A DNA stretch of 64,000 nucleotides from Allolobophora icterica (Eukaryota > Annelida > Clitellata > Crassiclitellata > Lumbricidae): assembly GCA_963556255.1 (NCBI GenBank), contig OY744613.1, forward strand, positions 38,390,234-38,454,233. The letters run 5' to 3'. The translations under genes and the position numbers were made by a program. This document shows, piece after piece, positions 43,502 to 60,575 of this stretch (positions within the stretch are counted from its first letter, which is position 1; each line of letters begins with the position of its first letter). The notes beneath the pieces were generated by a model. The model ran no database searches, was not told where the DNA came from, and saw only the letters and a program-made list of their open reading frames with translations.

Positions 43502-43730
43502 AGTAGATAGGAGATACAGGAACTGACGCAGTCGCTAGGTGTCGTTCTGAATGCTTTAAAACCGTTACAATGAGTGAATCTGAAACCGGAGTTGACGCAT
43601 TCGCCAGGCGGCGTTCTGAAAGCTTAAAAACCGTTACAAAGAGTGAATCTGAAACCCCAACCCGTTGGTGCTATCAAGGGCCTGCCAGAGGGGAATGGAA
43701 TGGTCATTCAGGGTAAAGAAATGAGATTAC
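43502..43730 (+). repeat. Polinton left terminal inverted repeat
   Basis: Begins AGTAGATAGGAGATACAGG and matches 60347-60575 in reverse complement over 229 bp without a difference found by eye. It contains two imperfect tandem copies of a roughly 68-bp unit, each with ACCGTTACAA and GAGTGAATCTGAAACC. Confidence 0.95.
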
Positions 43731-44654
43731 AAGCCTTCTCGTGACCAGCCAGCCCTTATAAACAGATCGGCTTTAAAAACAGTGCCTATGCTTATAACTC
43801 TCCCAGCCCTAAGTCTGCCACCTTCTCATCGTTCTCCTCCAGCACCAGGCAATTAAAATAACTCAATAGCACACACAACAACACACAGACACACACACAG
43901 ACACACACACAGACACACACACACACACACACCTACACACACATACATACACACATACACAAACACACATACACACATATACTGTCTGTGTCTGTCTGTC
44001 TGTCTGCAACGCACCGACAGACAAACAAACAGAAGAGACGCCCATATAGACAGGAACACACACACATACAGAGGCATAGACAGACCTACGCACAGACAGG
44101 CCTATACATAAAATTTTAAGTTAGAGAATCGGATAGAGGGTGAAAAATCCGGAATTTTGCGTACCTACACGGCATACTTTGCTTCATAAATAAAGAAACG
44201 CAGCGCTGGCCCATTTAAATCTTCAGCCATGAAGAACATACTGGGCCAAGCTGCCCATCTTAACGACTGCAGAACAAGCCACCTATCGAGTGTGGCGGAA
44301 TCATTTGATAATGCGATAGATATAACAAACTGAAATATGGTTCTTCTCGTAGATGGCACAGTAGCTACATTGGTAACGGCGTTAGGCATGATTGTTACGA
44401 CCCCAGTTCGCCTCCCGAAGACGGCACGACTTTTGTAAATACTTTAGTGATTTAAAATCTTGGTCTATCACGGTTGGTATCCTACACTGGGACCTTAAAT
44501 TGCGTCGTTCCGACCCATACGGACAGCGGTGATGAAGATTCTCATCCGATCAATGATCAAGGCCGAGACCATACAGTCGCTATATAAAACACGTACATTT
44601 GCATGTTCCCATTTCAGGTTACACGAGGGCTTAATTGATGCAGCCATCATTTGT

Positions 44655-44757
44655 GGGGCGTGGTGGCTCAGTGATAAGTTCAGCGCCTTGTGACAGGAGG
44701 GTTGCAGGTTCGAATCACACTCTAGCCGCTGCGTACGGACCTTGGGCAAGTCACCCC
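44655..44757 (+). mobile_element. tRNA-derived SINE head inside the Polinton
   Basis: GTGGTGGCTCAGTGATAAG fits a pol III A box and GGTTCGAATCA a B box at tRNA-like spacing. It is followed by GACCTTGGGCAAGTCAC, a phrase resembling conserved SINE core sequence. The 124-bp repeats start right after it. Confidence 0.6.
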
Positions 44758-45330
44758 GAAAGAAATTTTTCATTGTCAAAAATTCATCAGGTCAAAATCA
44801 ATATTTACACCTGAAACGTGCAGAAAAATCGTTTTTACGCTGTGTAAAATTTTTTCACCCATCCCCAAAAACTTTTACCCCGAAACAAATTTTTCATTGT
44901 CAAAAATTCATCAGGTCAAAATCAATATTTACACCTGAAACGTGCAGAAAAATCGTTTTTACGCTGTGTAAAATTTTTTCACCCATCCCCAAAAACTTTT
45001 ACCCCGAAACAAATTTTTCATTGTCAAAAATTCATCAGGTCAAAATCAATATTTACACCTGAAACGTGCAGAAAAATCGTTTTTACGCTGTGTAAATTTT
45101 TTCACCCATCCCCAAAAACTTTTACCCCGAAACAAATTTTTCATTGTCAAAAATTCATCAGGTCAAAATCAATATTTACACCTGAAACGTGCAGAAAAAT
45201 CGTTTTTACGCTGTGTAAAATTTTTTCACCCATCCCCAAAAACTTTTACCCCGAAACAAATTTTTCATTGTCAAAAATTCATCAGGCCAAAATCAATATT
45301 TCGAACGAAATCGTGCAGTGAACGCAAATC
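44752..45330. repeat. 124-bp tandem repeat, about 4.5 copies
   Basis: Units beginning CCCCGAAACAAATTTTTCAT recur with spacings of 124, 124, 123 and 124 bp. The last copy diverges after CAGGCCAAAATCAATATTT. The copies are almost identical, suggesting recent amplification. Confidence 0.9.
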
Positions 45331-45434
45331 TACGCTGAGTAAAATTTTCAGCCGGACTTTGAAATTTCAAAACGTGACACTTCTCGTCGTTTTCTGAATA
45401 CCATTTTTCGGTCACGTTTTTGGACTTGTGAATT

Positions 45435-45545
45435 ATGGAAATCGGGGAACTATGGAAATCGGGGAAATACGGAAATCTGGAACCACGGAAATCGGGGAAC
45501 TGCGGAAATCGGGGCACTACGGAAATCGGGGAACTGGGGAAATCG
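45435..45545. repeat. GGAAATCGGGGAACT short tandem repeat
   Basis: Seven or so imperfect units of about 16-18 bp (GGAAATCGGGGAACTA and variants), between the 124-bp array and the first gene. Confidence 0.8.
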
Positions 45546-45673
45546 TACGGCGGTGGCGCGGTGACCTGCGGAAACTTGAGCACATAAAAAATTATAAATC
45601 CGCTAATCGTATGGTGGTGGCGCGGTCGGAACAACAACAGATTCAACGTTCCAACCGCCTACGACGAAAATTT

Positions 45674-46279
45674 TTATATCGTGGTTCGCGGAGAAGACCC
45701 AGCGCTGGTTAGTTTCTTGATTAGTTCTGCCACCATCTGGTCTTTGCTTTGACTCGGCAACTCTTTTTTTCCATTCTTGCTTTGTATATCACGTTTCATC
45801 GTTCTATATTTCTCCTCCTCTCCCAGAATAAGCTTATACTCTTCATCACTAATTGCCGTGTCTTCCAACGCCTTAGAAATATGGTCATGAACAGTGTTTA
45901 GCTTACTCTCCGCCAAAATACAAATTTCATCGTGTTTTGAAGCTTTAGCAACAAAACTTCTACTAACAACATTTCCAATAATATCCAGAAGACTCGTCGC
46001 TATGGCTAAACTCTCTAGAACAATACCAGGAATAAAACCAATACCAGTGGCTAACATAGCTGCCCCACCCACCCCAGTTCCAAGACTAACCATAGCAAGG
46101 CCGGCCGAGGCCCCATTAGCCACATCTACAACCCTCTTATACTTTTTACACAGTTGTCCCCGACTTATCGCCTCAGACCTCAGGAATGCTTCTATTTCGC
46201 CGATTTTCTGCAAGCGAAATGTTTGCGACGTCGTGTCTGACGAAATTGTGGACTCCATAAGCGGTGGGTACAAAGACAT
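45674..46279 (-). CDS. Polinton protein with glycine-rich hydrophobic centre, 201 aa
   Basis: Function unknown. Residues 23-50 are a charged helix (QKIGEIEAFLRSEAISRG), residues about 58-105 a Gly/Ala-rich hydrophobic region that could form one or two membrane helices, and residues 115-170 a conserved-looking helical part with AESKLNTVHDHISKALED and DEEYKLILGEEEKYR. I recall near-identical phrases in unnamed proteins of other animal Polintons, so it is probably a real family member; this is memory, not a search. It is the last gene of the leftward block, 5 bp after the 181-aa gene. The hydrophobic centre suggests a membrane or virion-membrane role, as inference only. Confidence 0.75.
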   Translation of the reverse strand: MSLYPPLMESTISSDTTSQTFRLQKIGEIEAFLRSEAISRGQLCKKYKRVVDVANGASAGLAMVSLGTGVGGAAMLATGIGFIPGIVLESLAIATSLLDIIGNVVSRSFVAKASKHDEICILAESKLNTVHDHISKALEDTAISDEEYKLILGEEEKYRTMKRDIQSKNGKKELPSQSKDQMVAELIKKLTSAGSSPRTTI

Positions 46280-46284
46280 CCTTT

Positions 46285-46830
46285 TTATAGTTGCTCTATC
46301 AGTAACGTTACGTTTAACTCAATAGTTGAAGTACTTAAAACGCCTCTCTTTTTTCCTTCAATTCGAAAACTCGTTTGTCCTGGAATGAATATTGCCCTAG
46401 ATGCATCAAATTGTCCACTTTGAATGTCAACTGTACGATCGATGCTACCCGCGGCTGTAATAATGCGAACTGACGCATCACCGGTACTAACACCAAACAT
46501 TGTAAGCTTCCAGAACCCGCCCTCTAACGAAACCCCCTGATTGGTGGTTTGCAAAGTTATACACGGAAAACGCGCAGCGGTCAATGGAAGAGTTTGCCAC
46601 GCAGTCGTGGTTACCGTTCCGGCCGCTGTATAGATATCGCGGTTGTGGTAATCGTCAGACACGAAGTCGATGTGCTGTTGAGGCACCGCGGTCAATAGCT
46701 CTGCGGTTGGCTTCGGGATGTCGTACCCCCAGTGGCCTACATCACCTAGACTGTCTATGCTGTATTTGCACATGTCTATTTCTCCGTGTTGTCGGAGATA
46801 CCCCCGTATCTTGTAGTGTGAGTCGGCCAT
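46285..46830 (-). CDS. Polinton protein of unknown function, 181 aa
   Basis: No family recognised. The sequence is Thr/Ser/Gly-rich with alternating hydrophobic residues and aromatic turns (EGGFWKLTMFGVSTGDASVR), suggesting a compact beta-sandwich without signal peptide or membrane segment. It starts at an ATG directly preceded by TTAATA and lies 9 bp downstream of the fibre gene. Position suggests a fibre partner, a spike component or a fibre-assembly factor; that is inference. It could also be a small extra jelly-roll protein. Confidence 0.7.
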   Translation of the reverse strand: MADSHYKIRGYLRQHGEIDMCKYSIDSLGDVGHWGYDIPKPTAELLTAVPQQHIDFVSDDYHNRDIYTAAGTVTTTAWQTLPLTAARFPCITLQTTNQGVSLEGGFWKLTMFGVSTGDASVRIITAAGSIDRTVDIQSGQFDASRAIFIPGQTSFRIEGKKRGVLSTSTIELNVTLLIEQL

Positions 46831-46839
46831 TATTAAGTC

Positions 46840-49002
46840 TTATGTTTCCCCGTGTCTAAAATATGTATAGATCTGGAAGTGTGATATTCCAAAAGTTCCT
46901 TGTGTTGGGCTGGTGGCCAAGACCACCAGCATGAATTTTTTGTGTTCTGTGTCACAAGTGAAGGTGAACTCTTGTGCAGAATTAGTCAAAGCGACAGTGG
47001 AGGAAATGAGAGCAGGGACTCTCTGTGAATCGGTGGTTGGAACCCCATAAAACTTCCAGGACGTGATACGCGGAGCAGTAGGACTAGATCCCCCGGCCAG
47101 ACTAACCTTCCATATTCGCACAAGCGTCGGGCATTCAATCATTAAATAAGTCCCTGTAACCCGATCCCCAATCTGGGTTCTCGATGTGGACGCCGTCCTC
47201 CACTCACCTCTCACACCCGAGTTGAATGCCATATGGGGCGGGTTAGTGGGTAAAGATTCGTTGGCTGAGGCAATAAAACCCGTTTCGGAAACGTTTCTGG
47301 AAAGGGGCGGAATATGGCCGCTGTAGTTGAGAACCTTGATATTCTGCGCGTATCGCCTTTCTTTAGCTATCTCACTGTCCACATACCGCTTGTTAGTCAA
47401 GTACTTTGGTCCCGCAGGCGCCGTATCATTATTCGTAGCGGCATCAGTGATCAGCTGCGTAACTTGTTTCAAACTCACAGCGTCGCTATCGGATCCTGAA
47501 ATTTCCGTTGGGAGTCCAGTCACTCTTTTACCACCCATAGCCAGATCACCGGTCATGGTACTGCCGGATTTTAGCACGCAGGCGTTCCTAACGATAATAT
47601 CTTGCTCGTTGGCATATCTCTTAGCGGCGTCAGCTTTCTGGTCCGCATAGAGTCTAACGGAAGCTCCAATTTCAGCGTTTTTCACGTCAACGTATCGTTT
47701 ATTTGTCACATGCAACGGTTCTGTTGGTACTCTATCACTCTTTGTCATGTTGTCGGCGATCAGCTTCGATACTTGTGCCATACTCGACGCGTCGCTTTCG
47801 GACGTTGCTGCGCTCGTAGGGAGCCCAGTAACTCTTTTACCGCCCATGATTAAATCACCAGTCATTGCGTCGCCAGCTTTAAGCACGCATGCGCTCCTAA
47901 CGATAACATCTTGCTCGTTGGCGTACGTCTTAGCAGCTTCAGCTTTCTGGTCCGCATAGAGTCTAACTGAAGCTCCAATCTCAGCGTTTTTCGCGTCCAC
48001 ATACCGTTTGTTAGTCAAGTACTTTGGTCCCGCCGGCGCCGTATCATTATTCATAGTGGCGTTACTGATCAGCTGCGTCACCTGTTTCAAACTCGCGGCG
48101 TCGCTATCGGATCCTGGAATTTCTGTTGGCAGCCCAGTCACTCTTTTGCCGCCCATGGTCAAATCACCAGTCATAGAATCGCCGCTTTTGAGCACATGCC
48201 CGCCTCTTACGATAGCATGCTTCTCGTCCACATATCTTCTAGCGGTGGTGACCTTCTCATCCACGTACTGTCTGTAAGAAGCGTCGCGGGAATCTACATA
48301 CCGCTTATTCACCACATGCAACGACTCCGTTGGTACTCTATCGAGTTTTACTAGAGCGCCAGCGACCGCTGTTGACACTTGTTTCCAACTCGCTGCGTCG
48401 CTATCGGATCCTGAAATTTCTGTTGGGAGCCCAGTAACTCGGTGGCCACCCATAACTAAACTTCCAGTCATTACGCCGCCTGATTTGAGCACGCACGCAT
48501 TCCTGACGATAACATCTTGCTCGTTAACATAACTTTTAACAATAAGGTCCTTGTCATCTGCATACCGCCTAACAGAATCTCTCAGCCCCGCATTCTTCTC
48601 GTCCGCGTACTGCCTGGCATCGATAAGTTTTTGGTCTGCATGATTTTCGGCCGCGGTCGCCTTCTGGTCCGCGTATCGTACCACTTGTGCCCAACTCGCA
48701 GCGTCGCTATCGGACGTTGCTGTGTCTGTGGGCAGCCCAGTAACTTTGTGACCACCCATTTTTAGAACGCCAGACATCGTTCCACCGGTGAGTTGTAAGT
48801 TGTCCTGATCTACGATGTCTGCATAAGCCTTTGTCGCGGCGTCCGTTTCCATCGTCGGCGTTCCCACATTTGTCAGCCGAAAACCTCCAGCCGATAGAAT
48901 TCCCAACATGGTATCACCAGCCTTGTGGACGAGCCCAGCGGCGCTTATCTGCCCCCCTCCCACCCCACCTCCACCGTCTCTTCCAAATTTATCAACCGGC
49001 AT
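46840..49002 (-). CDS. Fibre/spike protein with phage-tail-type repeats, 720 aa
   Basis: Probable receptor-binding fibre. After a short N terminus (MPVDKFGRDGGGG, possibly the capsid anchor), six repeats follow, each with a core like GDSMTGDLTMGGKRVTGLPT and SDSDAASLKQV. They are separated by helical stretches (RRYVDEKHAIV, YADQKA, YANEQDVIVRNAC), giving a unit of about 80-100 residues. The MxGxLxMGGxxVxxLP ... DAAxxxxV pattern is that of bacteriophage tail-fibre shaft repeats, which form trimers. The last 170 residues form a distinct domain (ITSWKFYGVPTTD, then FTFTCDTEHKKFMLVVL and ISHFQIYTYF) resembling a discoidin/galactose-binding fold, a plausible head domain. The frame opens at a TTG; the ATG at 49002 follows TGTATATAAAA and is preferred. 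Length is unusually long for a Polinton protein. Confidence 0.75.
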   Translation of the reverse strand: MPVDKFGRDGGGGVGGGQISAAGLVHKAGDTMLGILSAGGFRLTNVGTPTMETDAATKAYADIVDQDNLQLTGGTMSGVLKMGGHKVTGLPTDTATSDSDAASWAQVVRYADQKATAAENHADQKLIDARQYADEKNAGLRDSVRRYADDKDLIVKSYVNEQDVIVRNACVLKSGGVMTGSLVMGGHRVTGLPTEISGSDSDAASWKQVSTAVAGALVKLDRVPTESLHVVNKRYVDSRDASYRQYVDEKVTTARRYVDEKHAIVRGGHVLKSGDSMTGDLTMGGKRVTGLPTEIPGSDSDAASLKQVTQLISNATMNNDTAPAGPKYLTNKRYVDAKNAEIGASVRLYADQKAEAAKTYANEQDVIVRSACVLKAGDAMTGDLIMGGKRVTGLPTSAATSESDASSMAQVSKLIADNMTKSDRVPTEPLHVTNKRYVDVKNAEIGASVRLYADQKADAAKRYANEQDIIVRNACVLKSGSTMTGDLAMGGKRVTGLPTEISGSDSDAVSLKQVTQLITDAATNNDTAPAGPKYLTNKRYVDSEIAKERRYAQNIKVLNYSGHIPPLSRNVSETGFIASANESLPTNPPHMAFNSGVRGEWRTASTSRTQIGDRVTGTYLMIECPTLVRIWKVSLAGGSSPTAPRITSWKFYGVPTTDSQRVPALISSTVALTNSAQEFTFTCDTEHKKFMLVVLATSPTQGTFGISHFQIYTYFRHGET

Positions 49003-49029
49003 TTTTATATACAAAAAGGTGACGGAAGT

Positions 49030-49452
49030 CTAACATAGGTCAAGAATGATATCTTCAAAATTCTTTCCAGCAGTGAGCTCTCTTAGCACGGTCAGGCAGA
49101 GATGACCACAGACCACATCATCGGGACCCTGCAGCTGGAACGTCTGTGTTCTTATAGGATTTTTTAAATATCTAGAAATTTCGAGAGGCGGATCCAGCCC
49201 ATAACTGTCAAAATAGACGGCTTTTGGTCCATCTATCCAATAGGCGACCCAGTGAGTACCATCACCAGAACCGGAATCCAGATTAACAACTCCACACTCC
49301 TTCTCACGAGCCACGGCTGGCAGACCATCTCGCATGAAAACACCGCGGAAATGCGGCAGCGCCCTGGCAACTTTCTCTATATCGAAGTTGCTAAGAGGTT
49401 TTAGTTTTTTTGTCCGATGTAGAGACCCGATCCTTTGCACATTGGGCAACAA
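49030..49452 (-). CDS. PRO: Adenovirus-type cysteine protease (maturation protease), 140 aa
   Basis: A Ulp1/adenain-type protease that would process capsid and core proteins during particle maturation. The catalytic set is visible: H67 in GTHWVAYW, D82 in VYFDSYG, Q108 in LQGPDDV and C115 in VVCGHLC. The N-terminal LSNFDIEKVARALPHFRGVF is the usual start of this family. It is about the length of other Polinton proteases and shorter than adenain. Its ATG lies 52 bp inside the 3' end of the preceding gene in another frame, and no later ATG preserves the N-terminal motif, so the overlap appears real. It is followed by the fibre gene after 27 bp. Confidence 0.9.
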   Translation of the reverse strand: MLPNVQRIGSLHRTKKLKPLSNFDIEKVARALPHFRGVFMRDGLPAVAREKECGVVNLDSGSGDGTHWVAYWIDGPKAVYFDSYGLDPPLEISRYLKNPIRTQTFQLQGPDDVVCGHLCLTVLRELTAGKNFEDIILDLC

Positions 49453-49892
49453 CCACCACGAGTCTCACGCCCGAGATATAAACCGGTCCCCCGCGCCTCG
49501 AGTGCGCGATTGTGACGCTCCGCCTCCGCCTGTGCGGCGTCGTTGGCCTGTTTGTTGTGCACGGCCTCAGTCACCCCAGCGGCAATACCACCCGCCGCGG
49601 ACAAACCGCCGAAAATCGCCGGAAGGAGAGCCAGTAGCGGAAGAAAGCCGCCCATTTTTGTCATCTTTTTCAGTTGCGTTTTGGTGAATCTCAGCTCCAT
49701 ACCAACGCCTTCCGAAATCTTCTTCACTATTCGGGCGGCTTGAACTTTTGTCAGCGCGAGCTTGTCGTCTCCGCGAAGCTGGCCATGAGTGAGCCGGATC
49801 GTGGCGCCAGTGCCGGCGCGCGCAGCTCTAGCTAATGTTTGCTTTTGCCCTTCGGTCAGTGAAAGGCCGAACGCAACGTATTGAGTTTTCAT
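49401..49892 (-). CDS. Polinton minor protein with GGFLP hydrophobic segment, 163 aa
   Basis: Function unknown. The N-terminal 75 residues are a small basic helix-rich domain (LTEGQKQTLARAARAGTG, ALTKVQAARIVKKI, FTKTQLKKM). Residues about 80-105 are a hydrophobic stretch (GGFLPLLALLPAIFGGL, then an Ala/Gly-rich run) that could insert in a membrane. The tail carries CCPMC and two GSGLYIG/GTGLYLG motifs. I recall this layout from other animal Polintons as a small basic, possibly DNA- or membrane-associated virion protein. It lies 57 bp downstream of the major capsid gene and overlaps the protease start. Confidence 0.7.
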   Translation of the reverse strand: MKTQYVAFGLSLTEGQKQTLARAARAGTGATIRLTHGQLRGDDKLALTKVQAARIVKKISEGVGMELRFTKTQLKKMTKMGGFLPLLALLPAIFGGLSAAGGIAAGVTEAVHNKQANDAAQAEAERHNRALEARGTGLYLGRETRGGCCPMCKGSGLYIGQKN

Positions 49893-49949
49893 TTTTGGAA
49901 AAAATATATCTAAAAGAGGGCCTTGTATCTAAATGTGAAAAACCGATTT

Positions 49950-51338: not shown

Positions 51339-51797
51339 TCATTTTGCAAGAAACAGACCCCTACCACAACGACTCGGCTTTATAGTCTTGAAACCGGATC
51401 CAGCAATGCGGCTGTTTATGTCAGCCATTGCCGGAACAACGGGTGGTGGACTCACAGCCAGTTGTTTTAAGTATTCGATGCTCTTGTCGCTGAGCGCCTT
51501 CTCCAAAGGTGCGGGAACAACAGGCGCGGCAGATGAATTTTCATTTCGTAAATGAGCTTCATTTGCGGCCGCAGCGCGTCTCGCTTTCACGGCATCAACA
51601 ATTTGCCTGACGGCAGATGCTGTTGTGGCGCCGGCTTTCGCGACATTACCAACCGCCTTGGCAACGTTTGTGATTGTGCCTCTATTCGCCGAAATGAAGG
51701 AGCCTGCACGGCCAAGGAAACCCGCGATTTTGGGTATCCAGTCGAAAAGTCCACCACCCACGACACGACGCCGCTTTTTAATTCCAAGAACCAACAT
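51339..51797 (-). CDS. pVI-like minor capsid/membrane-lytic protein, 152 aa
   Basis: Resembles the precursor of adenovirus protein VI in layout: a basic N terminus (GIKKRRRVVGGG), then an amphipathic helix (LFDWIPKIAGFLGRAGSF), a helical Ala-rich middle, a Pro-rich linker and a short basic tail. Two stretches fit maturation-protease cleavage consensus: VVGGG just before the amphipathic helix and IAGSG near the C terminus, which matches (M/I/L)xGx-G. That would release the helix, as in adenovirus, and free a C-terminal peptide. The frame opens from a GTG at 51827, but the ATG at 51797 fits better and leaves 22 bp after the minor capsid gene. Lytic function is inferred from the layout. Confidence 0.65.
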   Translation of the reverse strand: MLVLGIKKRRRVVGGGLFDWIPKIAGFLGRAGSFISANRGTITNVAKAVGNVAKAGATTASAVRQIVDAVKARRAAAANEAHLRNENSSAAPVVPAPLEKALSDKSIEYLKQLAVSPPPVVPAMADINSRIAGSGFKTIKPSRCGRGLFLAK

Positions 51798-51819: not shown

Positions 51820-52620
51820 TTACGCACTGCGGATGTGAAACCTTATAGTTACTGTCTCACCGCGGAGGTTTAATTGTTCACCATTCTGGTCGGTCAGCCA
51901 CACACGAATGCCCTGTACGTTACCAGCCGGTGCAACTGGTAGGTACACCAGATTTTTCGGAGACTCGATTACCTTGTAGCCGGGCGACACATCCGGGAAA
52001 AAACTGTAGATTACTGGCAGCTGGCTACCATTTCGAAACGATCCAGAGATAATGTCACAATTTACCAGGATTGTGTCCACGCGGAGAATATCGACTGGAT
52101 TTTCTCCCTCTTTATAACCACTACCAAGCCTCTGAGGGTTAAAACCGAGCATTTGCCTGATGGTAGATTGAGCCATATTTACCTTATATAGGGCATTCGT
52201 AATTTTTATGAAGGCGCGTAGGGTAGATGCGTTAGCTCCTATGGTAATAGGAGAATTAAAGCCGAGTGGTGCCACACCCGTCGGAGAATTTTGCTTTTCT
52301 AACTGCCTACCGATTTCATCATTAATCTGTGCGATCTCGTAGCTTCCGTCGGGCAAAATGATCGTCTTCCACGTCACACCATTGTCGGTGCTGTAGACGA
52401 ACTTGTTATTTGTGCTATCGATGTTGGGAATCGAATTATAAGTTTCAAGATTGACCAAAGCAAGCTCAAAGCGTCTTTTTGGATCCAGGTACAGCGGTGG
52501 TGAGAAAGCCGTGGTCCACCCTGTAGTATCTGAGGAAACAACTATACTAAAATTTTCCTTAGGCTGTAAAAGTTCTCTAATTTCTTCGAGCAGTTTCTCC
52601 GAGCGTTCCATCTGAGCCAT
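51820..52620 (-). CDS. mCP: Minor capsid (penton) protein, single jelly-roll, 266 aa
   Basis: Probable vertex protein of the capsid. An N-terminal helical arm (ERSEKLLEEIRELLQP) precedes a beta-sandwich with the typical Polinton penton phrases: FELALVNLETYNSIPNID, NNKFVYSTDNG, DGSYEIAQINDEIGRQL, MLGFN, VDTILVNCDIISGSFRNG, PVIYSFFPDVSPGYKVIE. Size fits the family. It lies 18 bp after the 366-aa gene and 22 bp before the pVI-like gene. Confidence 0.85.
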   Translation of the reverse strand: MAQMERSEKLLEEIRELLQPKENFSIVVSSDTTGWTTAFSPPLYLDPKRRFELALVNLETYNSIPNIDSTNNKFVYSTDNGVTWKTIILPDGSYEIAQINDEIGRQLEKQNSPTGVAPLGFNSPITIGANASTLRAFIKITNALYKVNMAQSTIRQMLGFNPQRLGSGYKEGENPVDILRVDTILVNCDIISGSFRNGSQLPVIYSFFPDVSPGYKVIESPKNLVYLPVAPAGNVQGIRVWLTDQNGEQLNLRGETVTIRFHIRSA

Positions 52621-52638: not shown

Positions 52639-53739
52639 CTATTTTATGAGCATGTTTCTATTCAATTCGAGTGCCAGCTCTTTGGAGATCGCACCGGAAC
52701 GCAGTAACTCGTCGAGAATGGCGGAGATTTCGTTGCCGAGACCAGTGTTTCCCGCGGCCCTAGAGGCCACCAAAAGCTGCAACCTCTCTACCAGGGCGTT
52801 TGGATCGTTGTAAAATTGCACCGCGCCACCTCGAATCAGCTGGAACTTTTTACTTTTCCGGCCATGAATAGGCAGACCAGACATCTGTACGAGCTTTTTA
52901 AAAGTTTCAATTGCTTGAGGCGAATATTGTTTAGTCTTAACGAATCGTTTCGTTAGTAGATTGAACAACGACTCATCGGCCGGAGATTCGAGAACGAGGT
53001 TACCACCTTTAAACACTCTCAGTCTACCGGCAGACAACGCGACGGGGTCAACGGAGAGCTCACCCAAGGCGTTACCTTGTAATTTCAGAGGAACGGTTGG
53101 AACACTGAAACCCTTTCCCTTTTTGATGAGGGTGTGGCCCTCTATCAGTGTATCGATTCGCTTTTTATATTCCCTTAGGGCTTCGATATCTGCAGTCACC
53201 GCATCTACCTTTTCTTCGTCTTTTTGCTTTTTAGCCAGCTTTTTCTCTTTGCCCAGGGCGTGGCGATTATAGTGATTGACCTCACCGATTATCTTTTCAG
53301 CACCTGCCTTGTCGGCTAAATCGAGCTCGCTCGGAGGTCTGAAACCGTGCCTTATGATTGCCTCGACGTTGAGATATTTGTTTGGATCAACTAACAGTGC
53401 GGGGGGGATTCGGGATGCTGGAAGCGCTGGAAGCGCTGGAGCAGCTGTTCCTGCTGAATCGCCGAACAACGCCGCTATCGGGTTAAAATTAGCAGACTCT
53501 GAAATCTGCGCCGGCAAATCCTGTAAAGCGCTGGTAACTTTCTGCAACTCCTTAGACGTAGCCGCCTGGGATTCAGCCGTGGCTGTGGCGATTGGTTTGA
53601 AAAGCTTTGTCGCATCGTACTGAAGGTTGGCTTCACCGAGCTTCTCATCCACGAAACGCTGTCTCAATCGATTTCTCCGAGCTAAATAGTCCTGAGTCAA
53701 CGCGTCTCGCTCCTGTTTAGACGAAACTTTTGTCCACAT
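52639..53739 (-). CDS. Polinton virion-associated protein of unknown function, 366 aa
   Basis: No enzymatic motif. Residues 1-95 are charged helices, about 100-125 a Pro/Ala-rich hinge, 165-205 a Lys/Glu-rich coiled coil (GKEKKLAKKQKDEEKVDAV, then LREYKKRIDTLIEGH), and 220-320 a compact domain (GGNLVLESPADESLFNLLTK and FKKLVQMSGLPIHGRKSKKF). I recall proteins with this C-terminal domain in other animal Polintons directly next to the minor capsid gene. Placement between ATPase and penton suggests a structural, scaffold or packaging role, as inference. It starts at ATG 53739, 40 bp after the ATPase stop. Confidence 0.75.
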   Translation of the reverse strand: MWTKVSSKQERDALTQDYLARRNRLRQRFVDEKLGEANLQYDATKLFKPIATATAESQAATSKELQKVTSALQDLPAQISESANFNPIAALFGDSAGTAAPALPALPASRIPPALLVDPNKYLNVEAIIRHGFRPPSELDLADKAGAEKIIGEVNHYNRHALGKEKKLAKKQKDEEKVDAVTADIEALREYKKRIDTLIEGHTLIKKGKGFSVPTVPLKLQGNALGELSVDPVALSAGRLRVFKGGNLVLESPADESLFNLLTKRFVKTKQYSPQAIETFKKLVQMSGLPIHGRKSKKFQLIRGGAVQFYNDPNALVERLQLLVASRAAGNTGLGNEISAILDELLRSGAISKELALELNRNMLIK

Positions 53740-53779
53740 CGTGGTTGTATGTCGGCTATATGTTGCCTAAATCGTGTCT

Positions 53780-54466
53780 TTAAATACTTGCCTTGGGCTT
53801 ATAGAAGCGATCGAACCCGCAACGATATTTTCCATCGTACACTTTAGACGTCAAATCTATGACTGCGAATCCATATGGCTGGGCAGCACACTCGCTGAAG
53901 AACGTACGGAACTCATCGAAAGACATGTCGCCGCCTACGAACGTATCGTGAATGGCTCGCAAATTTTTACTGTCTTGGTTGAAGAGGACTATAAGATTAG
54001 CATTGTCACGGATCGCTTGCTTCGGAATTCGAAAATAATTCTGTGTTAAGTAGAAGCAGTCCGCGCCACCGTGTCGACCCATAGTGAAATACCTTTCGAT
54101 GGGCGACTGTTTTTCAAGCATGACGTCATCGAACACTAGAAGGCTTCTGGCATTCTTATTTAATGATTCAACTGGAACTATTTCATCTGAGCAAGAGTGA
54201 AAGGAAGCCACTTCCTTCCCGGCAACTTTTTCGAGTTCTGTTATCCAGTCCCGGAGGAACTGATATTTTTCCTGTCCCAGAGACTTCGAGTATAGATACA
54301 GCCGATCAAAACGCAGGTACCCCTTTTTCAGAAGGAGGTTGAGCAGCAGGTTTGTTTTCCCACATCCGCTAGGCCCACAGATTATACACCGTATGCTGGA
54401 TGGCAACAACCAATGGTGGTGTTTTTTCCCATCGTCGGCTTCGAGATCGAAATTTGTTATTTCCAT
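53780..54466 (-). CDS. ATP: A32-like (FtsK/HerA-type) genome-packaging ATPase, 228 aa
   Basis: Would power DNA loading into the capsid. Walker A is GPSGCGKT (residues 31-38), Walker B is SLLVFDDV (108-115) with the acidic DD pair, and the downstream Ser/Thr-Gln sensor motif FYLTQNYF plus an Arg-rich GRHGGAD segment fit the A32-like packaging ATPases of Polintons, adintoviruses and poxviruses. The frame extends upstream through GTG/other starts, but the ATG at 54466 gives the usual short N terminus (MEITNFDLEADDG). It is divergent to the PLA2-like gene with only 38 bp between start codons, which implies a shared promoter region. Confidence 0.9.
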   Translation of the reverse strand: MEITNFDLEADDGKKHHHWLLPSSIRCIICGPSGCGKTNLLLNLLLKKGYLRFDRLYLYSKSLGQEKYQFLRDWITELEKVAGKEVASFHSCSDEIVPVESLNKNARSLLVFDDVMLEKQSPIERYFTMGRHGGADCFYLTQNYFRIPKQAIRDNANLIVLFNQDSKNLRAIHDTFVGGDMSFDEFRTFFSECAAQPYGFAVIDLTSKVYDGKYRCGFDRFYKPKASI

Positions 54467-54504
54467 ATAGAGACAACGAGTTATGATTGTATTCAACGAA
54501 AACA
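54467..54504. promoter_or_regulatory. 38-bp divergent intergenic region (ATPase / PLA2-like)
   Basis: The only place in the element where two genes diverge. It must carry, or overlap, start signals for the leftward morphogenesis block and the rightward pair. No clear TATA box; the ATPase start is preceded by GTCTCTAT. Confidence 0.45.
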
Positions 54505-55074
54505 ATGTATTGCCTACGATGTAAGAAACATACTGAGACTTCAAATGAAACAATCGTCGAGTTACGAAACGGTCGGCCAGCCAAGAAGGGAACGTGTGCC
54601 GTCTGCGGTGCAAAGAAGAGCCAAATTTTGCCTTCTAAAGTGCGGAAGCATAAGTCTCGCGAGACTTATGGAGGCTCGCTACTGAATAGCGCTCTTAATG
54701 TTCTTCCTCTACCAGAAATGCATATGAGCCTTCCATCCGGTATGCCTTCGGAAGATAATCCGGGAGGTTCTTTCCAGAATACAGGAAAGTACTCTTACTG
54801 TGGGCCATTCACAAAACTCGATAAACGGCTGTCACAGCGCTATCACGGTGTTAATCAGCTCGACCGTGCGTGCCTCCACCATGATGTGGCTTACGCAGTT
54901 CATAAAGATACCCCAGGGCGTAACCACGCAGATGACATCCTCGCTGCAGCCGCGTCGAAGATCGCACTCACCGATGAAACTCCAGATTATGAGAAGAAGG
55001 ATGCCCGGCTCGTATCGGCCATTATGTCAGCAAAGTCGAGGCTAGGGATGGGTGTTGGACGGCGGCGCAAATGA
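54505..55074 (+). CDS. Zinc-ribbon plus phospholipase A2-like protein, 189 aa
   Basis: Two parts. Residues 1-40 hold two CxxC knuckles (CLRC at 3-6 and CAVC at 31-34), a small zinc ribbon. Residues about 94-185 resemble the phospholipase A2 domain of parvovirus capsids: a Ca-binding-like loop (YCGPFTKLD, 98-106), the catalytic His-Asp pair in LDRACLHHDVAY (H126, D127), and a later acidic helix start (NHADDILAAAA). Such a domain opens endosomal membranes during entry in parvoviruses. A Gly-rich basic tail follows. The frame opens from TTG; the ATG at 54505 is preferred. Its stop overlaps the first possible ATG of the integrase frame (ATGA at 55071). Confidence 0.75.
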   Translation: MYCLRCKKHTETSNETIVELRNGRPAKKGTCAVCGAKKSQILPSKVRKHKSRETYGGSLLNSALNVLPLPEMHMSLPSGMPSEDNPGGSFQNTGKYSYCGPFTKLDKRLSQRYHGVNQLDRACLHHDVAYAVHKDTPGRNHADDILAAAASKIALTDETPDYEKKDARLVSAIMSAKSRLGMGVGRRRK

Positions 55075-55124
55075 AAATCATTTGTGTATGTGTTTACCTG
55101 TTTGTTATATATAGTTTAACTGAA

Positions 55125-56156
55125 ATGTCTAAGCACCTTTCAACTGTCTATTACAGCCCTAGAGGTTACTGGCGAGGTAAGGCTGCGGTGAAGAAACTAG
55201 CCTCAGCCGCCAAAGTTTCCGAGGCGGAGGCTCGTGATTGGTTGAAGAAACAAGCTGTGTGGCAGATTTATCTTCCCGTTCCACGCCGCATACCGCGTCC
55301 AAAGTTCGATGAAAATCGACCAAACGCGGTACACCAAGCCGATCTCTTGTTTTTACCTCACGATAAAGTAGGCCGAAAGACTTATAAATACGCTCTCACT
55401 GTTGTTGATGTTGCCTCACGATACAAAGAAGCTGAACCGTTGATCAACAAAAGTGCGACCGAAGTCGCCGCCGCTTTAAGCCGGATCTATAAGAGGGGCC
55501 CATTAACTTGGCCTCGACTCTTTCAGGTCGATCCTGGACGCGAATTTATGGGTGATTTTACACCGTTGCTGACGAAGCACGACGTTCTTGTAAGACGCGG
55601 ACAGGCCGGAAATCATCGCCAACAGGGCATCGTTGAACGCTTTAACCGTACTCTAGCTGAGCGACTTTTCGGTGCCCAGTACGCTCAGGAATTGCTCCTG
55701 GCTGCAAGGGGTTCATCCGAACGGTCAGTGGAATGGGTTCGACGATTGCCCGAAGTTGTAGCTGCACTAAACGATGAGCCGACGCGCTTGCTCGACATGA
55801 AGCCGGTTGAAGCGATGAAAGCTGCTAAAGTGACACAGAAGCCCTCTCATTCACAAACTAAAAACGCAAATGAAATTCATTCGCGTTTGTGGGGCTTGGA
55901 TGAGCCTATTCTTGGACACGACGTTCTCGTCCGATATTTGTACGCTCCCGGCGAGCTCGAGGGTGGTAGCAAACGAGCCACCGACCCTAACTGGTCGCTC
56001 ACCATCCACGCTATTTTGGATGTTGTTCGGCGGGCTGGCCAACCGGCTTTATACCATCTAGTTGATGGGCCTGGCCGCGGTTTTGTCCGTGAGGAGCTGA
56101 TTCTGGTGCCTATGGGCACTGAGCTACCCCCCGATAGAATACTCAACCGTCGTTGA
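55125..56156 (+). CDS. INT: Retroviral-type (DDE) integrase, 343 aa
   Basis: Inserts the element's ends into target DNA. The catalytic core is clear: D73 in VHQADLLFLP, D136 in FQVDPGREFMGDF and E171 in QQGIVERFNRTLAERLF, with 34 residues between the second and third acids. Residues 1-60 form a helical N-terminal part without a clear HHCC zinc site. The C-terminal 100 residues end in an SH3/chromo-like barrel (HDVLVRYLYAPGELEGG, then YHLVDGPGRGFVREELIL). An upstream ATG at 55071 would add a hydrophobic leader; the ATG at 55125 preceded by TTATATATAG fits better. It converges on the polymerase gene, the two coding ends overlapping by 14 bp. Confidence 0.9.
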   Translation: MSKHLSTVYYSPRGYWRGKAAVKKLASAAKVSEAEARDWLKKQAVWQIYLPVPRRIPRPKFDENRPNAVHQADLLFLPHDKVGRKTYKYALTVVDVASRYKEAEPLINKSATEVAAALSRIYKRGPLTWPRLFQVDPGREFMGDFTPLLTKHDVLVRRGQAGNHRQQGIVERFNRTLAERLFGAQYAQELLLAARGSSERSVEWVRRLPEVVAALNDEPTRLLDMKPVEAMKAAKVTQKPSHSQTKNANEIHSRLWGLDEPILGHDVLVRYLYAPGELEGGSKRATDPNWSLTIHAILDVVRRAGQPALYHLVDGPGRGFVREELILVPMGTELPPDRILNRR

Positions 56157-59100
56157 TTTTGTAGTGCCCGTATGCCAGCGTTTTATTCCCGTCCGGAGAT
56201 ATCCACTTTTTTGTGTCTAATGGAGAGAGGCTGATCTTATTCTGCTCGTACACTCCGATCTGGTGGTCGTGGCTTCTAATCACGACTTGTGTGTGCCGCA
56301 TCTCTTCTCGTTCGAACAGGCACTCCTTGTATAGCTCGTGGTGCAGATCCTTCTTCACAACTGCTCTCTGAACGCCTTTTGCTTTCCTGATTTCTGAACC
56401 ACCCGATTTTAAGATCGAGTACATCTTCGGACGCAGTCCCACGAATTCGGCTATGGCCACTCCGTTACATTCATCTTTGAACTTGCCCACGACTTTCTTG
56501 TTCTCGACGTCGTAGTACGGGCTGTCTCTAGGAAACTCACTAAAGTCGTATGAGTGTTTTTTGTTCCACATATCGGCATAGGCGTCCGGAGTTTCCACCT
56601 GAAATAAGAGGCTATCTGTGTCTGTATATAGCAACTGGGCTCTTTCACCGTATTGATTTTTCACATCGTTGTACCAGAAGTCGTACATCAGATGCTTGCT
56701 GAGGTCGAGGACAGCCTGGCCGACATATACAGGTCTGTTTAACTTGAGCTTGTTCTTCAAACTGTGAATCGCGGCGAGTTGGTCGATGAAGATTTTGTGT
56801 GATATGTAGGCCGGGTCAGCAATTAGTTTACGAAGTTTGTCAACTTTTGAGGTCGGTACCAGGTTAACTCTGATTCTTTTTCTAAGATTTTCCATGGTTT
56901 TTCCGAAAACTGCATTATTAGCCAGTTTGAAGAAATCCTTCTCAAACTCCGACGTTGCCTTCGCCCTCAATTTTGTATTCATCTCGATATATGGAGCCAT
57001 CCACGCCTCCTGTCTAAACTTAATGACACGATGAATTTTAGAAACTCGTAGCCCTAACGAGTGGTAGAGTTTGAGATTTCTATAATGGACCACATACCGC
57101 TCCTTAGGTCGCAGGCTTGGTACTAACTTCACATGCTTTGTGAACTTGCCTCCCAACTCGTTCATAAGCACATTCTGATAGTCACTCAACCACTCCTCTT
57201 GGACTGTCAGGGTCTCCGGTGCTAAGCGATAGTCGCTATGTGATTCGTGGAGGTGCTCCGGGTACCCGAGATCGACTTCAAGTAGGAAGCCTTCAGGCGC
57301 GTCGTCTGGAGTTTCCAACACTTCATCGAGAGTTGGACTTTCCCAGCTAAATCCTCCAACTGGCAGTGGCTGTTGCATCGCCCAGCCGTAAAGATTATTC
57401 GCGTCGAGATACATGATCCAGTTGTCTGGCTTCGTAGTATCATGATCTGGGCATTGCGGGTTGTTGGCTTTTGCGAAGCGCTTAGATACCATCGAGATTC
57501 CACCTCGGAGACCTTTCTCTACGAACAAATGCATATCTATATCGGTTAAAAGTTCGAGTTCGATTTTCGTCTTTTTCAACAAAGCATCCCAGGCCATTCC
57601 TGGCAGGCTGAAGTAGTTAGCCGGGTCGAGACTGTAGTGTTTCATCGATGTGGATCTGAAGGTCTCGAAGACATCGGCTAGTAGAAGTACATCCGTGCGG
57701 AGATACAGGTCGTGATAGTCACCCAGAGTTCTACAATCGAATTCATTCCATACTCTTTGGGCGTGTTGATAATCCTCATCAGAAATGTTTTCTCGGGAGA
57801 GCCTGCTGTAGAACGCTTCTTTAGGTGGAAGTCGGTCTTCTTCGAAGCGGTGGTAATCGTCAATGTGCTCGTAACAATATACGCCCTTTCGCCTCAAAAG
57901 ATCTAGTTTTGTCCTATCATTGTGAACGAAATTTTCCTTTATATATGCCGTTGTGACTTTCAGATCGTGGAGGGACAGATTTCCTGATAATTTATCCAAC
58001 GAGCTGTTTAGAAACTGGAGACTATCGATGAACTGTAGTTGTCCAATGTTAAATGTCATGTATTTCTCCATATTGTTTGGGATGCAGTTAATTTCAGTTT
58101 GTTCATCCTGTGCGGCCTCACAGCCTCCGATCGCTTGCATGATGAGATGGCTGTCGTAACCTCGCAGATTGTGGAAGACCACTGGTACCTTACACTTATC
58201 GGGATATATTCTAAGTTTTAAGTTACACTCGCTGTGAGCGGCACCTCGGTACTTACCGGTAATGTGGCAGTGGTCGCGAACTCTATCCGCTTCGAGCGCT
58301 TCTCCGCAGATGTGACATTCAATAGCCTCGCGGAATAATTGGCGATCGGCCGCTGACATAACTATCTTAGCTGGGGTGGCCAGCCTTTGTTTGATAGAAG
58401 CCAGCTCGCCTTGTAGTCGTTTTAGGAACTCTTCAACGGCGTTCTCTCCACGATATAAAACTGGTTTCTTCGTGCGACCGTCGCATCGAACCACTATATA
58501 ACAGAAGCTGCATGGTTTCTGCTCAGCTATCTGTCTGGTGTTGCTCTCGCTGGGGTTCATGACTGCACCTTCGATTGGTATGTTTAGAGCCTCGAAGTCT
58601 GCGTAAACGATATACGGGGCTCGCATCTGTTTGTGATGGTTCTGGAATTTGAGGATATTTTCATCGTCTTTTGGCATCTCAATCCGCTGAGGCTTCTTAC
58701 TAATACCCTGGCAATCTTTGATATGGGCATCCAGCAAGTCTTGTCTACAGAATATGTGTAGGCAGCGACGACATGGGTGTTTCTTGTGCTTGTCTTTGCT
58801 ATTTTGATGAAGAATTCGGCCAAGGTCTTTAATCCAGACGTAGTGGTAATCCTCACCTTTAACTAATAGTAGAAGATCGATATTATAGTCTCTATTGGTC
58901 TGCTTTGAGACATAAATCGGGTACAGCCCTTCATTCCATCCGAAGACCGATACGGACACCATCGGGTTCTGACGCTCGAACTTGCCGACATCTGTGACCT
59001 TCACTGGAAATTCTATTCCGTCGAAGTTTAGCTCGAGGAGGTGGGCACGATACTTAGTTGGGCGTTGAGGGTCCTTATCTACTGGATACATTGCGCTTAG

Positions 59101-59883
59101 AATGGCCCACTCGAAGCACCGGTTGTCTTCATTCTTTACATTAACGACTGAATGATAGGGGATATACTTCGGTGTTGCAAAATAGCTCTTGCCTCGGAAA
59201 GGCTTATATCTTGCAAAACTGAGGTCTAGCGCCACGACCCGCCTCACCCTCCACCCCGACCCCTCATTGGTGTAATCCTCGAGGAGTTTTAGTATTTCGG
59301 CCTTGGCCTTCCGTATAGCCCCTTGGATTTTACCCGCATTGGTAACTGGTACTGCTTTGCTTCGAAAGTATGTTGTGGTGGTAATAATACCGGGAGCCGC
59401 GTTGCCATCGTACACGTTGTCAATAGTCGGCGCCAACTTTTCCAAATCAACAGTCAACACTTGAGAGTATTTCAGACCGTCCTGTTTCAACAACTCTTCG
59501 TTGAGTTGTGCCTCAATGCTGTGCTCCATTGCACTCAAGAAAGCCAATGCATCTCCTTCCAGCCTGTGGTTAAGAGGTACTTCTGCACGGAAGTCTCTCA
59601 GAAGCTTATTGGCGAGCTCTTTGTGTAGTAGAAAGGGTGGTGGTCCACCTCTATCCTTCTTAATTAGGAGTGGGTCGAATTGTGCCAGAAGGGCCTTACG
59701 ATTTGCCCCTCTATGCTTGCGCACTGGAGGAATTGGCCTTGGAAGCAGTGGCTGTAGTAAGCGCCTTTTGACCGCATCTGGGATAGGTTCGTCTAAGATA
59801 TTCTGTAGAACAGCTCGAAGAGCGGGGGGACCAGTAAACTCACCCAACAATTGTTCAATTTTTTCATTCGTAGACAATGCCAT
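56143..59883 (-). CDS. POLB: Protein-primed family B DNA polymerase, 1246 aa
   Basis: Replicates the element, with a terminal protein as primer. Exonuclease motifs: YADFEAL (427-433), FHNLRGYDSHLIM (570-582) and YLRTDVLLL (727-735). Polymerase motifs: A MYLDANNLYGWAM (824-836), B KLANNAVFGKTMENL (986-1000), C YTDTDS (1086-1091). The N-terminal 420 residues include a CRRCLHIFCRQDLLDAHIKDC zinc-finger-like unit (371-391). Inside the exonuclease domain lies CHICGEALEADRVRDHCH followed by TGKYRGAAHSECN (523-554), an endonuclease-VII-like zinc module common in animal Polinton polymerases. Full length, no stops. No separate terminal-protein gene is seen; the long N-terminal region may supply it. 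Confidence 0.95.
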   Translation of the reverse strand: MALSTNEKIEQLLGEFTGPPALRAVLQNILDEPIPDAVKRRLLQPLLPRPIPPVRKHRGANRKALLAQFDPLLIKKDRGGPPPFLLHKELANKLLRDFRAEVPLNHRLEGDALAFLSAMEHSIEAQLNEELLKQDGLKYSQVLTVDLEKLAPTIDNVYDGNAAPGIITTTTYFRSKAVPVTNAGKIQGAIRKAKAEILKLLEDYTNEGSGWRVRRVVALDLSFARYKPFRGKSYFATPKYIPYHSVVNVKNEDNRCFEWAILSAMYPVDKDPQRPTKYRAHLLELNFDGIEFPVKVTDVGKFERQNPMVSVSVFGWNEGLYPIYVSKQTNRDYNIDLLLLVKGEDYHYVWIKDLGRILHQNSKDKHKKHPCRRCLHIFCRQDLLDAHIKDCQGISKKPQRIEMPKDDENILKFQNHHKQMRAPYIVYADFEALNIPIEGAVMNPSESNTRQIAEQKPCSFCYIVVRCDGRTKKPVLYRGENAVEEFLKRLQGELASIKQRLATPAKIVMSAADRQLFREAIECHICGEALEADRVRDHCHITGKYRGAAHSECNLKLRIYPDKCKVPVVFHNLRGYDSHLIMQAIGGCEAAQDEQTEINCIPNNMEKYMTFNIGQLQFIDSLQFLNSSLDKLSGNLSLHDLKVTTAYIKENFVHNDRTKLDLLRRKGVYCYEHIDDYHRFEEDRLPPKEAFYSRLSRENISDEDYQHAQRVWNEFDCRTLGDYHDLYLRTDVLLLADVFETFRSTSMKHYSLDPANYFSLPGMAWDALLKKTKIELELLTDIDMHLFVEKGLRGGISMVSKRFAKANNPQCPDHDTTKPDNWIMYLDANNLYGWAMQQPLPVGGFSWESPTLDEVLETPDDAPEGFLLEVDLGYPEHLHESHSDYRLAPETLTVQEEWLSDYQNVLMNELGGKFTKHVKLVPSLRPKERYVVHYRNLKLYHSLGLRVSKIHRVIKFRQEAWMAPYIEMNTKLRAKATSEFEKDFFKLANNAVFGKTMENLRKRIRVNLVPTSKVDKLRKLIADPAYISHKIFIDQLAAIHSLKNKLKLNRPVYVGQAVLDLSKHLMYDFWYNDVKNQYGERAQLLYTDTDSLLFQVETPDAYADMWNKKHSYDFSEFPRDSPYYDVENKKVVGKFKDECNGVAIAEFVGLRPKMYSILKSGGSEIRKAKGVQRAVVKKDLHHELYKECLFEREEMRHTQVVIRSHDHQIGVYEQNKISLSPLDTKKWISPDGNKTLAYGHYKINDG

Positions 59884-59970
59884 AGTAATAAATTAGTTTA
59901 TATTACTGTGGCAAACTTTTCTCTAATATAATAAGTTTATCATTTCTTTAAATAGAAATTTTTTTATTAT

Positions 59971-60246
59971 CTAGTCTATTGAAATAGATGATAGACGTTT
60001 CCATTCTTTATTAAATTCGCGAACTAACCCACCTCGTCGAGCTCTCAAATATTTAGCGAAATAACCACATTTCATACACTCACCCACGTGTGTTTTTATA
60101 CCCCTTCCACATTTGGCACATGGTCTTGTCCCACAACCGTTTCGCAGTCGTGCCAAATGTTTGAAACAGTACTCCCCAATGCACCTGCGACAGCAGAGGG
60201 ATGTTTTACCTATACCGAGCCAAATGCAAAAGTTTTGTCCTAACAT
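59971..60246 (-). CDS. Small cysteine-rich zinc-ribbon protein, 91 aa
   Basis: A basic protein with ten cysteines, including CCRRC, CAKC and CMKC, arranged as two zinc ribbons, and a basic Arg/Lys-rich C terminus. It would be a nucleic-acid-binding protein, perhaps an early regulator or replication accessory factor, since it lies nearest the right repeat and upstream of the polymerase in the same direction. ATG at 60246 follows an AT-rich leader (CATAAAACATA). Family not identified. Confidence 0.65.
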   Translation of the reverse strand: MLGQNFCIWLGIGKTSLCCRRCIGEYCFKHLARLRNGCGTRPCAKCGRGIKTHVGECMKCGYFAKYLRARRGGLVREFNKEWKRLSSISID

Positions 60247-60346
60247 TATGTTTTATGTATACCACAACCTATTCATTTATTTAAATTGAAAAATGACCCG
60301 GTTTGGGCCGGCCTCGTGGGAGGTTCTCGGCCGGCAGCAAACGTTG

Positions 60347-60575
60347 GTAATCTCATTTCTTTACCCTGAATGACCATTCCATTCCCCTCTGGCAGGCCCT
60401 TGATAGCACCAACGGGTTGGGGTTTCAGATTCACTCTTTGTAACGGTTTTTAAGCTTTCAGAACGCCGCCTGGCGAATGCGTCAACTCCGGTTTCAGATT
60501 CACTCATTGTAACGGTTTTAAAGCATTCAGAACGACACCTAGCGACTGCGTCAGTTCCTGTATCTCCTATCTACT
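60347..60575 (-). repeat. Polinton right terminal inverted repeat
   Basis: Reverse complement of 43502-43730, ending CCTGTATCTCCTATCTACT. No difference from the left copy was found by eye. It includes the same internal pair of roughly 68-bp units. Confidence 0.95.

What the first reader, a model, noticed from the sequence alone, without database searches (positions are those of the whole stretch)
43502..60575. Complete, apparently recent Polinton with a virion gene set
Terminal repeats of 229 bp look identical, the target duplication is intact, and all fourteen predicted genes are open and intronless. Many Polintons are decayed, so this one is a candidate for a currently active, possibly virion-forming element.
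Basis: partly seen in the sequence, partly recalled or inferred. Interest (0 to 1): 0.9.

Follow-up and report, generated by a model that had tools for sequence, protein, structure and literature searches.

The report
Intact young Polinton; protease likely frameshifted
A complete, undamaged virus-like transposon sits inside an animal zinc-finger gene, and its capsid-maturing protease lacks a start codon of its own and appears to be made by ribosomes slipping back one base, the way some retroviruses make theirs.

Summary
A 17,074-bp Polinton (43502-60575) has terminal repeats identical at 229 of 229 bp and interrupts a C2H2 zinc-finger ORF. The target duplication is 5 bp (AATGC); counted once, it restores an open 717-residue host frame that matches a neighbouring finger at the join. 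Capsid, packaging, integrase and polymerase genes are open, and CpG is undepleted relative to the host. 'Complete and recent' is well supported. 'Currently active' and 'virion-forming' could not be tested: the genome search did not complete.

The second correction: the adenain-like protease has no ATG outside its conserved domain. The upstream adenovirus-pX-like gene ends CAA AAA AAC TAA, a canonical -1 slippery heptamer (A_AAA_AAC) touching the stop, and the -1 frame runs straight into the protease. Metagenomic relatives agree: 18 of 25 pX-like proteins reaching the tail end in KN; 15 of 16 informative top-ranked proteases carry KK there; identity in that frame rises from 12% upstream of KK to 68% downstream.

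Best reading: a young intact Polinton whose clade makes a pX-protease fusion by retrovirus-style -1 frameshifting. Against: no significant RNA structure downstream, many relatives have an upstream methionine, and relatives' DNA could not be obtained.

The parts
43502..43730 (.). left terminal inverted repeat, 229 bp, with two diverged ~75-bp sub-repeats
   Evidence: identical to the right repeat at 229 of 229 positions; sub-repeats
60347..60575 (.). right terminal inverted repeat, 229 bp
43497..43501 (+). target duplication copy AATGC, left
60576..60580 (+). target duplication copy AATGC, right
42575..43501 (+). left half of the interrupted host C2H2 zinc-finger ORF (stop-to-stop start)
60576..61807 (+). 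right half of the interrupted host C2H2 zinc-finger ORF
43731..45673 (.). left non-coding region: CA-rich stretch, 124-bp tandem repeat (4.4 copies, 99% matches, 44753-45301) and 17-bp repeats (6.5 copies, 45437-45545)
45674..46279 (-). 201-aa ORF, function unknown
   Evidence: no Pfam match, no PHROGs match
46285..46830 (-). 181-aa ORF, function unknown
   Evidence: no Pfam match, no PHROGs match
46840..49002 (-). 720-aa repetitive protein, fibre-like by its repeats (inferred)
   Evidence: five MTGxLxMGGxxVTGLPT-type repeats; weak match to a phage tail fibre, E 0.019
49030..49464 (-). adenain-like protease, open stop to stop; conserved from about residue 21, only ATG at 49335 inside the domain
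49404..49410 (-). A_AAA_AAC slippery heptamer in the pX frame, directly before the TAA stop at 49403-49401
49401..49892 (-). pX-like core protein, 163 aa
   Evidence: Adeno_PX E 6e-4, 20 bits, below the family cut-off of 25; 4 of 96 relatives carry PF05829
49950..51245 (-). double jelly-roll major capsid protein, 431 aa
   Evidence: PF21738 E 4.4e-54; model and fold matches
51339..51797 (-). 152-aa ORF, function unknown
51820..52620 (-). 266-aa ORF, possible penton (inferred from position only)
   Evidence: no Pfam match above its cut-off; two weak PDB rows, E 0.13
52639..53739 (-). 366-aa ORF, function unknown
53780..54466 (-). packaging ATPase (A32-like), 228 aa
   Evidence: Pox_A32 E 2.7e-8
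54505..55074 (+). DUF5679 plus phospholipase A2-like protein, 189 aa
55071..56156 (+). rve integrase, 361 aa, with D, D and E motifs
   Evidence: rve E 4.4e-10; motifs
56143..59883 (-). family B DNA polymerase with OTU-like Cys and His motifs, 1246 aa
   Evidence: DNA_pol_B_2 E 7.1e-22; motifs
59971..60246 (-). 91-aa Cys-rich ORF, possible zinc ribbon
   Evidence: Zn_Ribbon_1 E 0.046, below cut-off

Best explanation
It is a complete, recently integrated Polinton (class Polintoviricetes, near the adintoviruses/Eupolintoviridae) that its integrase placed in a zinc-finger exon with a 5-bp target duplication. Shown: the anatomy and its intactness. Inferred: its polymerase copies the linear genome by protein priming, and its capsid, ATPase and protease genes could build and mature particles. 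The protease has no usable start codon. Most likely, ribosomes translating the pX-like core protein slip back one base at A_AAA_AAC just before its stop, and a minority make a pX-protease fusion. That would set the protease dose and carry it into the particle with the core protein, as Gag-Pro frameshifting does in MMTV and HTLV (recalled). The slippery site, its position and the protein-level trace of it in relatives are shown; frameshifting itself, its rate and the packaging role are inferred.
For: Element: repeats 229 of 229 identical, 5-bp duplication, host frame restored; open gene set with capsid, ATPase, integrase, polymerase; capsid model matches DJR capsids. Protease: profile hits adenovirus proteinase 1avp at E 1e-6; model matches adenovirus proteases at E 1e-6 to 2.6e-5 and adintovirus adenain best. 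Slip site: A_AAA_AAC in the pX frame abutting the stop, the only one of 12 slippery-type heptamers among 4,582 codon pairs of 13 coding sequences that touches a stop; the -1 frame is open for 124 codons, all of the protease. Relatives: 18 of 25 pX-like proteins that reach the tail end in KN; of the 19 top-ranked protease relatives 3 are uninformative, 15 have KK, 1 lacks it; xKN-stop with KKL in the -1 frame allows only A_AAA_AAC or A_AAA_AAT. Identity in the protease frame is 11.8% before KK and 67.8% after PLSN (11 sequences, 55 pairs). Residues 1-18 of the model are disordered and order begins at KK; the only ATG, residue 44, is at the end of a core strand.
Against: Downstream RNA does not fold better than shuffles (z 0.36, -1.07, -0.77, -1.06). 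13 of 16 KK relatives have a methionine upstream in the protease frame as annotated. P0130 lacks KK; 7 of 25 tail-reaching pX-like relatives do not end in KN. Relatives' DNA was not seen; pairs were matched only by equal contig length and source. No RNA, protein or read data; the homopolymer could not be checked against reads.
Confidence: 0.72

Rival explanations
1. The protease is translated from its own start within the part overlapping pX: an ATG in many relatives, a GTG here, reached by leaky scanning, reinitiation or a separate transcript.
For: 13 of 16 KK relatives have an upstream in-frame methionine; a GTG lies ten codons before KK in this element.
Against: No ATG upstream of residue 44 here. 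The upstream methionines vary in position and their surroundings are not conserved (11.8% identity); gene callers choose such starts by rule. It does not explain KK next to pX tails ending in KN.
Confidence: 0.13
2. RNA polymerase slips on the run of seven A, so that some mRNAs fuse pX and protease in frame.
For: The run 49405-49411 is 7 A on the coding strand; P0245 and P0259 tails read as if the run differed by one base.
Against: A_AAA_AAC in the exact codon phase and touching the stop is the expected form of a ribosomal slip site; only 6 A are implied in relatives. Four other runs of 7 A or T lie in 45674-60246 without such a joint.
Confidence: 0.07
3. The protease start has been lost, or the joint is misassembled: this copy is slightly decayed and its protease is not made.
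For: No ATG; more distant relatives do start with ATG at the domain (six listed rows begin MPLSNFD); homopolymers are error-prone.
Against: Close relatives from independent contigs show the same tail and KK; all other genes and both repeats are intact.
Confidence: 0.05
4. An intron joins part of pX, or another exon, to the protease.
For: A donor-like GTGAGA and an acceptor-like CTCTTAG are in the joint (sequence).
Against: That pair joins out of the protease frame and would remove conserved residues (checked by hand; other pairs not enumerated). Intact vertebrate Mavericks are described as having intronless ORFs (PMC8097293).
Confidence: 0.03

Closest known systems
Intact vertebrate Mavericks (PMC8097293: abstract and first part of Results seen)
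   Same: Size (12.7-24.6 kb there), inverted repeats (46-1,447 bp there), integrase, protein-primed polymerase, ATPase, capsid and protease genes, intact copies beside mostly decayed ones
   Different: 6-bp target duplications there, 5 bp here; fibre-like and phospholipase genes here; no frameshifted protease seen in the part I read
Adintoviruses / Eupolintoviridae (PMC11071296: passages and section 16 seen; taxonomy)
   Same: PolB with OTU-like motifs, rve integrase, DJR capsid, adenain; best viral fold match of the protease is Terrapene box turtle adintovirus adenain
   Different: That preprint predicts -1 slippery sites in Penton genes and a 'similar relationship' for Hexon-Adenain fusions; here the partner is the pX-like gene
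Retroviral gag-pro frameshifting in MMTV and HTLV (recalled, no call)
   Same: A_AAA_AAC near the end of a structural gene; the -1 frame leads into the protease
   Different: dsDNA virus-like element, cysteine protease, heptamer touches the stop, no significant downstream structure found
Polintons as viruses, Krupovic 2014 (PMC4028283: passages seen)
   Same: DJR capsid, penton, ATPase and adenovirus-like protease in one transposon
   Different: No mention of frameshift in the text (0 occurrences)

Membership tests
Polinton/Maverick (Polintoviricetes) | terminal inverted repeats and a short target duplication | tested here: met
   229 of 229 bp; duplication 5 bp, while 6 bp is reported for intact vertebrate Mavericks
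Polinton/Maverick (Polintoviricetes) | family B polymerase of the viral/organellar type | tested here: met
   DNA_pol_B_2 E 7.1e-22; protein priming not testable
Polinton/Maverick (Polintoviricetes) | rve-type integrase | tested here: met
   rve E 4.4e-10 with D, D, E motifs
Polinton/Maverick (Polintoviricetes) | packaging ATPase | tested here: met
   Pox_A32 E 2.7e-8
Polinton/Maverick (Polintoviricetes) | adenovirus-like cysteine protease | tested here: met
   profile to 1avp E 1e-6; fold matches; His71, Asp86, Gln112 and Cys119 invariant in 46 sequences
Polinton/Maverick (Polintoviricetes) | double jelly-roll major capsid protein | tested here: met
   PF21738 E 4.4e-54; Foldseek to PBCV-1, iridovirus, mavirus and Sputnik capsids
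Polinton/Maverick (Polintoviricetes) | single jelly-roll penton | tested here: inconclusive
   266-aa ORF without a Pfam match above cut-off; not modelled
Eupolintoviridae (adintoviruses) | PolB and hexon of the Alpha or Beta clade | not tested
   no tree with named reference sequences was built; only the protease fold points there
-1 programmed ribosomal frameshift site | X_XXY_YYZ heptamer in the zero frame with a long open -1 frame | tested here: met
   A_AAA_AAC, 124 codons open
-1 programmed ribosomal frameshift site | conservation in relatives | tested here: met
   protein level only: 18 of 25 tails, 15 of 16 informative proteases
-1 programmed ribosomal frameshift site | stimulatory RNA structure downstream | tested here: not met
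   four windows, best z -1.07; pseudoknots not modelled. Not every known site needs one (recalled)
-1 programmed ribosomal frameshift site | fusion product made | not testable with these tools
   no ribosome profiling, proteome or reporter

The most novel reading that the evidence does not exclude
A whole clade of Polintons makes its maturation protease only as a -1 frameshift extension of a core protein: a retrovirus-style gag-pro strategy that arose independently in adenovirus-like DNA viruses which also carry a retroviral-type integrase, with the switch from ATG-started to frameshifted protease visible between clades.
Probability: 0.6. Interest if true: 0.75.

Novelty: new variant of a known kind. 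Interest (0 to 1): 0.6.

Why it matters
Whether Polintons make particles is a standing question (particles not observed, PMC8097293 abstract). A young intact copy is a good place to ask it. If the protease is dosed by frameshifting within a core-protein fusion, relatives are keeping a virion-maturation device in working order, which itself argues for particle formation, and a one-site reporter test can check it. It also warns that annotation by ATG-started ORFs truncates this protease: database entries such as P0134, P0139 and P0144 start at the internal methionine.

Tried and rejected
Relatives' DNA: seven IMG/VR scans gave no relative; the two loci they returned, L001 and L020, are unrelated by translation. 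One GTDB scan gave 18 loci (L002-L019), judged unrelated by eye from their translations. INPHARED phages: no match to the capsid protein. Copy number, empty alleles and host: the genome search on the window's own genome did not complete. Host repeats in the left non-coding region: no blastn match to the rest of the window at E 1e-3. Rfam: nothing at gathering score in 43300-60800. PDB sequence searches: nothing for capsid, integrase or polymerase; the protease profile also listed three prolyl hydroxylase sequences near E 0.003, taken as chance. PHROGs, 8 proteins: two weak matches to families of unknown function (E 0.015 for the 366-aa ORF, 0.089 for the 91-aa ORF), none for the other six. The first codon enumeration had a slicing error; its zero solutions were discarded and one search is the corrected run. 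Pair P0263/P0140: only the last residues were solved; its initial M cannot come from that pX tail, so the pairing is doubtful. dN/dS was not possible without relatives' DNA.

Literature: searches listed no paper on a pX-protease frameshift in Polintons by title or abstract start; the nearest text is PMC11071296 (passages and section 16). Seen in passages only: PMC4028283, PMC11071308, PMC12567637, PMC2836005. PMC8097293: abstract and part 1 of Results. The founding adintovirus paper is not held.
Full report
What was claimed and what is there. The two terminal repeats are identical at 229 of 229 bp; the ends read AGTAGATAGG and CCTATCTACT. The flanking duplication is AATGC, 5 bp. Three facts fix that number: the bases next to each end, the reading frame (removing 5 bp keeps the C2H2 frame, removing 6 bp breaks it), and the paralogous finger at 42898, identical to the rebuilt junction over the 34 bases compared. 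The interrupted gene is one of three C2H2 ORFs of the window; joined, it has 717 residues and one terminal stop.

Age. No repeat difference in 229 bp bounds the insertion at about 0.65 to 6.5 million years for assumed rates of 1e-8 to 1e-9 per site per year (rates assumed). Both host halves are open. CpG observed/expected is 0.96-1.18 in 10 overlapping 3-kb windows of the element and 0.55-1.04 in 28 of the left flank, so the element has not taken on the host's CpG depletion, though viral sequence may have differed from the start. These fit a recent insertion; they do not show present activity.

Genes. Thirteen ORFs run from ATG to stop without internal stops. Pfam assigns the DJR capsid protein, A32-like ATPase, DUF5679-phospholipase A2, rve integrase and family B polymerase. 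The capsid model (28 sequences, pLDDT 75, pTM 0.79) matches PBCV-1, iridovirus, mavirus and Sputnik capsids, at TM-scores near 0.5. Of 456 capsid relatives, 120 were listed; the closest full-length five are 78-82% identical, from JGI or an unnamed source; one listed row names an organism, the mollusc Ylistrum balloti, at 51%. I aligned 27 of the 120 with the query. The host was not identified.

The protease. The stop-to-stop frame 49030-49464 is adenain-like: the family profile hits human adenovirus proteinase at E 1e-6, the model (46 sequences, pLDDT 86.5) matches adenovirus proteases at E 1e-6 to 2.6e-5, and the best viral fold match is the adenain of Terrapene box turtle adintovirus. Its first ATG is residue 44. 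The family is conserved from PLSNFDIE, residue 22 on; residues 26-33 form a helix and 39-44 a strand. A protein started at residue 44 would lose both.

The joint. On the minus strand the pX-like gene ends GGA CAA AAA AAC TAA while the protease frame reads ACA AAA AAA CTA AAA CCT CTT AGC. A_AAA_AAC (49410-49404) is in the pX frame and touches the stop. In 13 coding sequences 12 of 4,582 codon pairs make a heptamer of this type and only this one abuts a stop. From it the -1 frame stays open for 124 codons.

Relatives. Without DNA I used the two proteins. Of 96 pX-like relatives, 25 reach the tail motif and 18 end in KN; the other seven are P0245, P0253, P0255, P0257, P0263, P0268 and P0279. Of 137 protease relatives 120 were listed. 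I examined the 19 top-ranked, plus P0160, added by hand because it shows the motif. Of the 19, three start inside the domain (P0134, P0136, P0139), one lacks KK (P0130) and 15 have it. In the whole list, 59 have at least 4 residues before a recognised domain start and 15 of these have KK within 7 residues of it; six rows start MPLSNFD with an ATG at the domain. So the arrangement belongs to this clade. Enumerating codons, a tail ending xKN-stop whose -1 frame reads KKL can only be A_AAA_AAC or A_AAA_AAT plus any stop. This holds for the window and for two pairs sharing contig length and source (P0250/P0123, P0262/P0135); P0263/P0140 would give A_AAA_AAG but is doubtful. Identity in the protease frame is 11.8% in the ten residues before KK and 67.8% in thirty residues from PLSN (11 sequences including the window, 55 pairs), so constraint on that frame starts about at the slip site. 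The model's disorder ends at the same place (residues 1-18 below pLDDT 50).

Against it. The RNA downstream folds no better than shuffles in four windows (z 0.36, -1.07, -0.77, -1.06). In 13 of 16 KK relatives there is a methionine upstream in the protease frame, so an own start in the overlap remains possible for them; it is not conserved in position or surroundings and is absent here. A seven-A run can also make RNA polymerase slip. No RNA, protein or read evidence was available.

Mechanism. I judge the element's identity, completeness and youth at about 0.95, and -1 frameshifting to a pX-protease fusion at 0.72 with it. The expected consequence is a minor fusion that takes the enzyme into the particle with the core protein (inferred).

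What is known. The element is a new member of the Polintons. One preprint predicts -1 slippery sites in adintovirus Penton genes and says a similar relationship was seen for potential Hexon-Adenain fusions (PMC11071296, section 16). The listings of searches, which cover open-licence papers only, showed no report of a pX-protease frameshift; the founding adintovirus paper was not held.

Noticed in passing
46840-49002: 720-aa protein with five MTGxLxMGGxxVTGLPT-type repeats like phage tail fibres (PDB 23sh_r, tail fiber gp9, E 0.019; no PHROGs match); a possible receptor-binding fibre.
   Followed up: partly
44753-45301: 124-bp tandem repeat, 4.4 copies at 99% matches, in the element's left non-coding region; 17-bp repeats follow at 45437-45545.
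   Followed up: no
42575-43501 and 60576-61807: The zinc-finger exon halves are strongly CpG-poor (observed/expected 0.14 and 0.24), far below the left flank as a whole.
   Followed up: no
54505-55074: DUF5679 fused to a phospholipase A2-like domain of the parvovirus VP1 kind (resemblance recalled); its stop overlaps the integrase ATG as ATGA.
   Followed up: no
16302-17951 and 35167-36197: Two reverse-transcriptase ORF regions of host retroelements; the second is in two overlapping frames and its Pfam match is weak (E 0.1).
   Followed up: no
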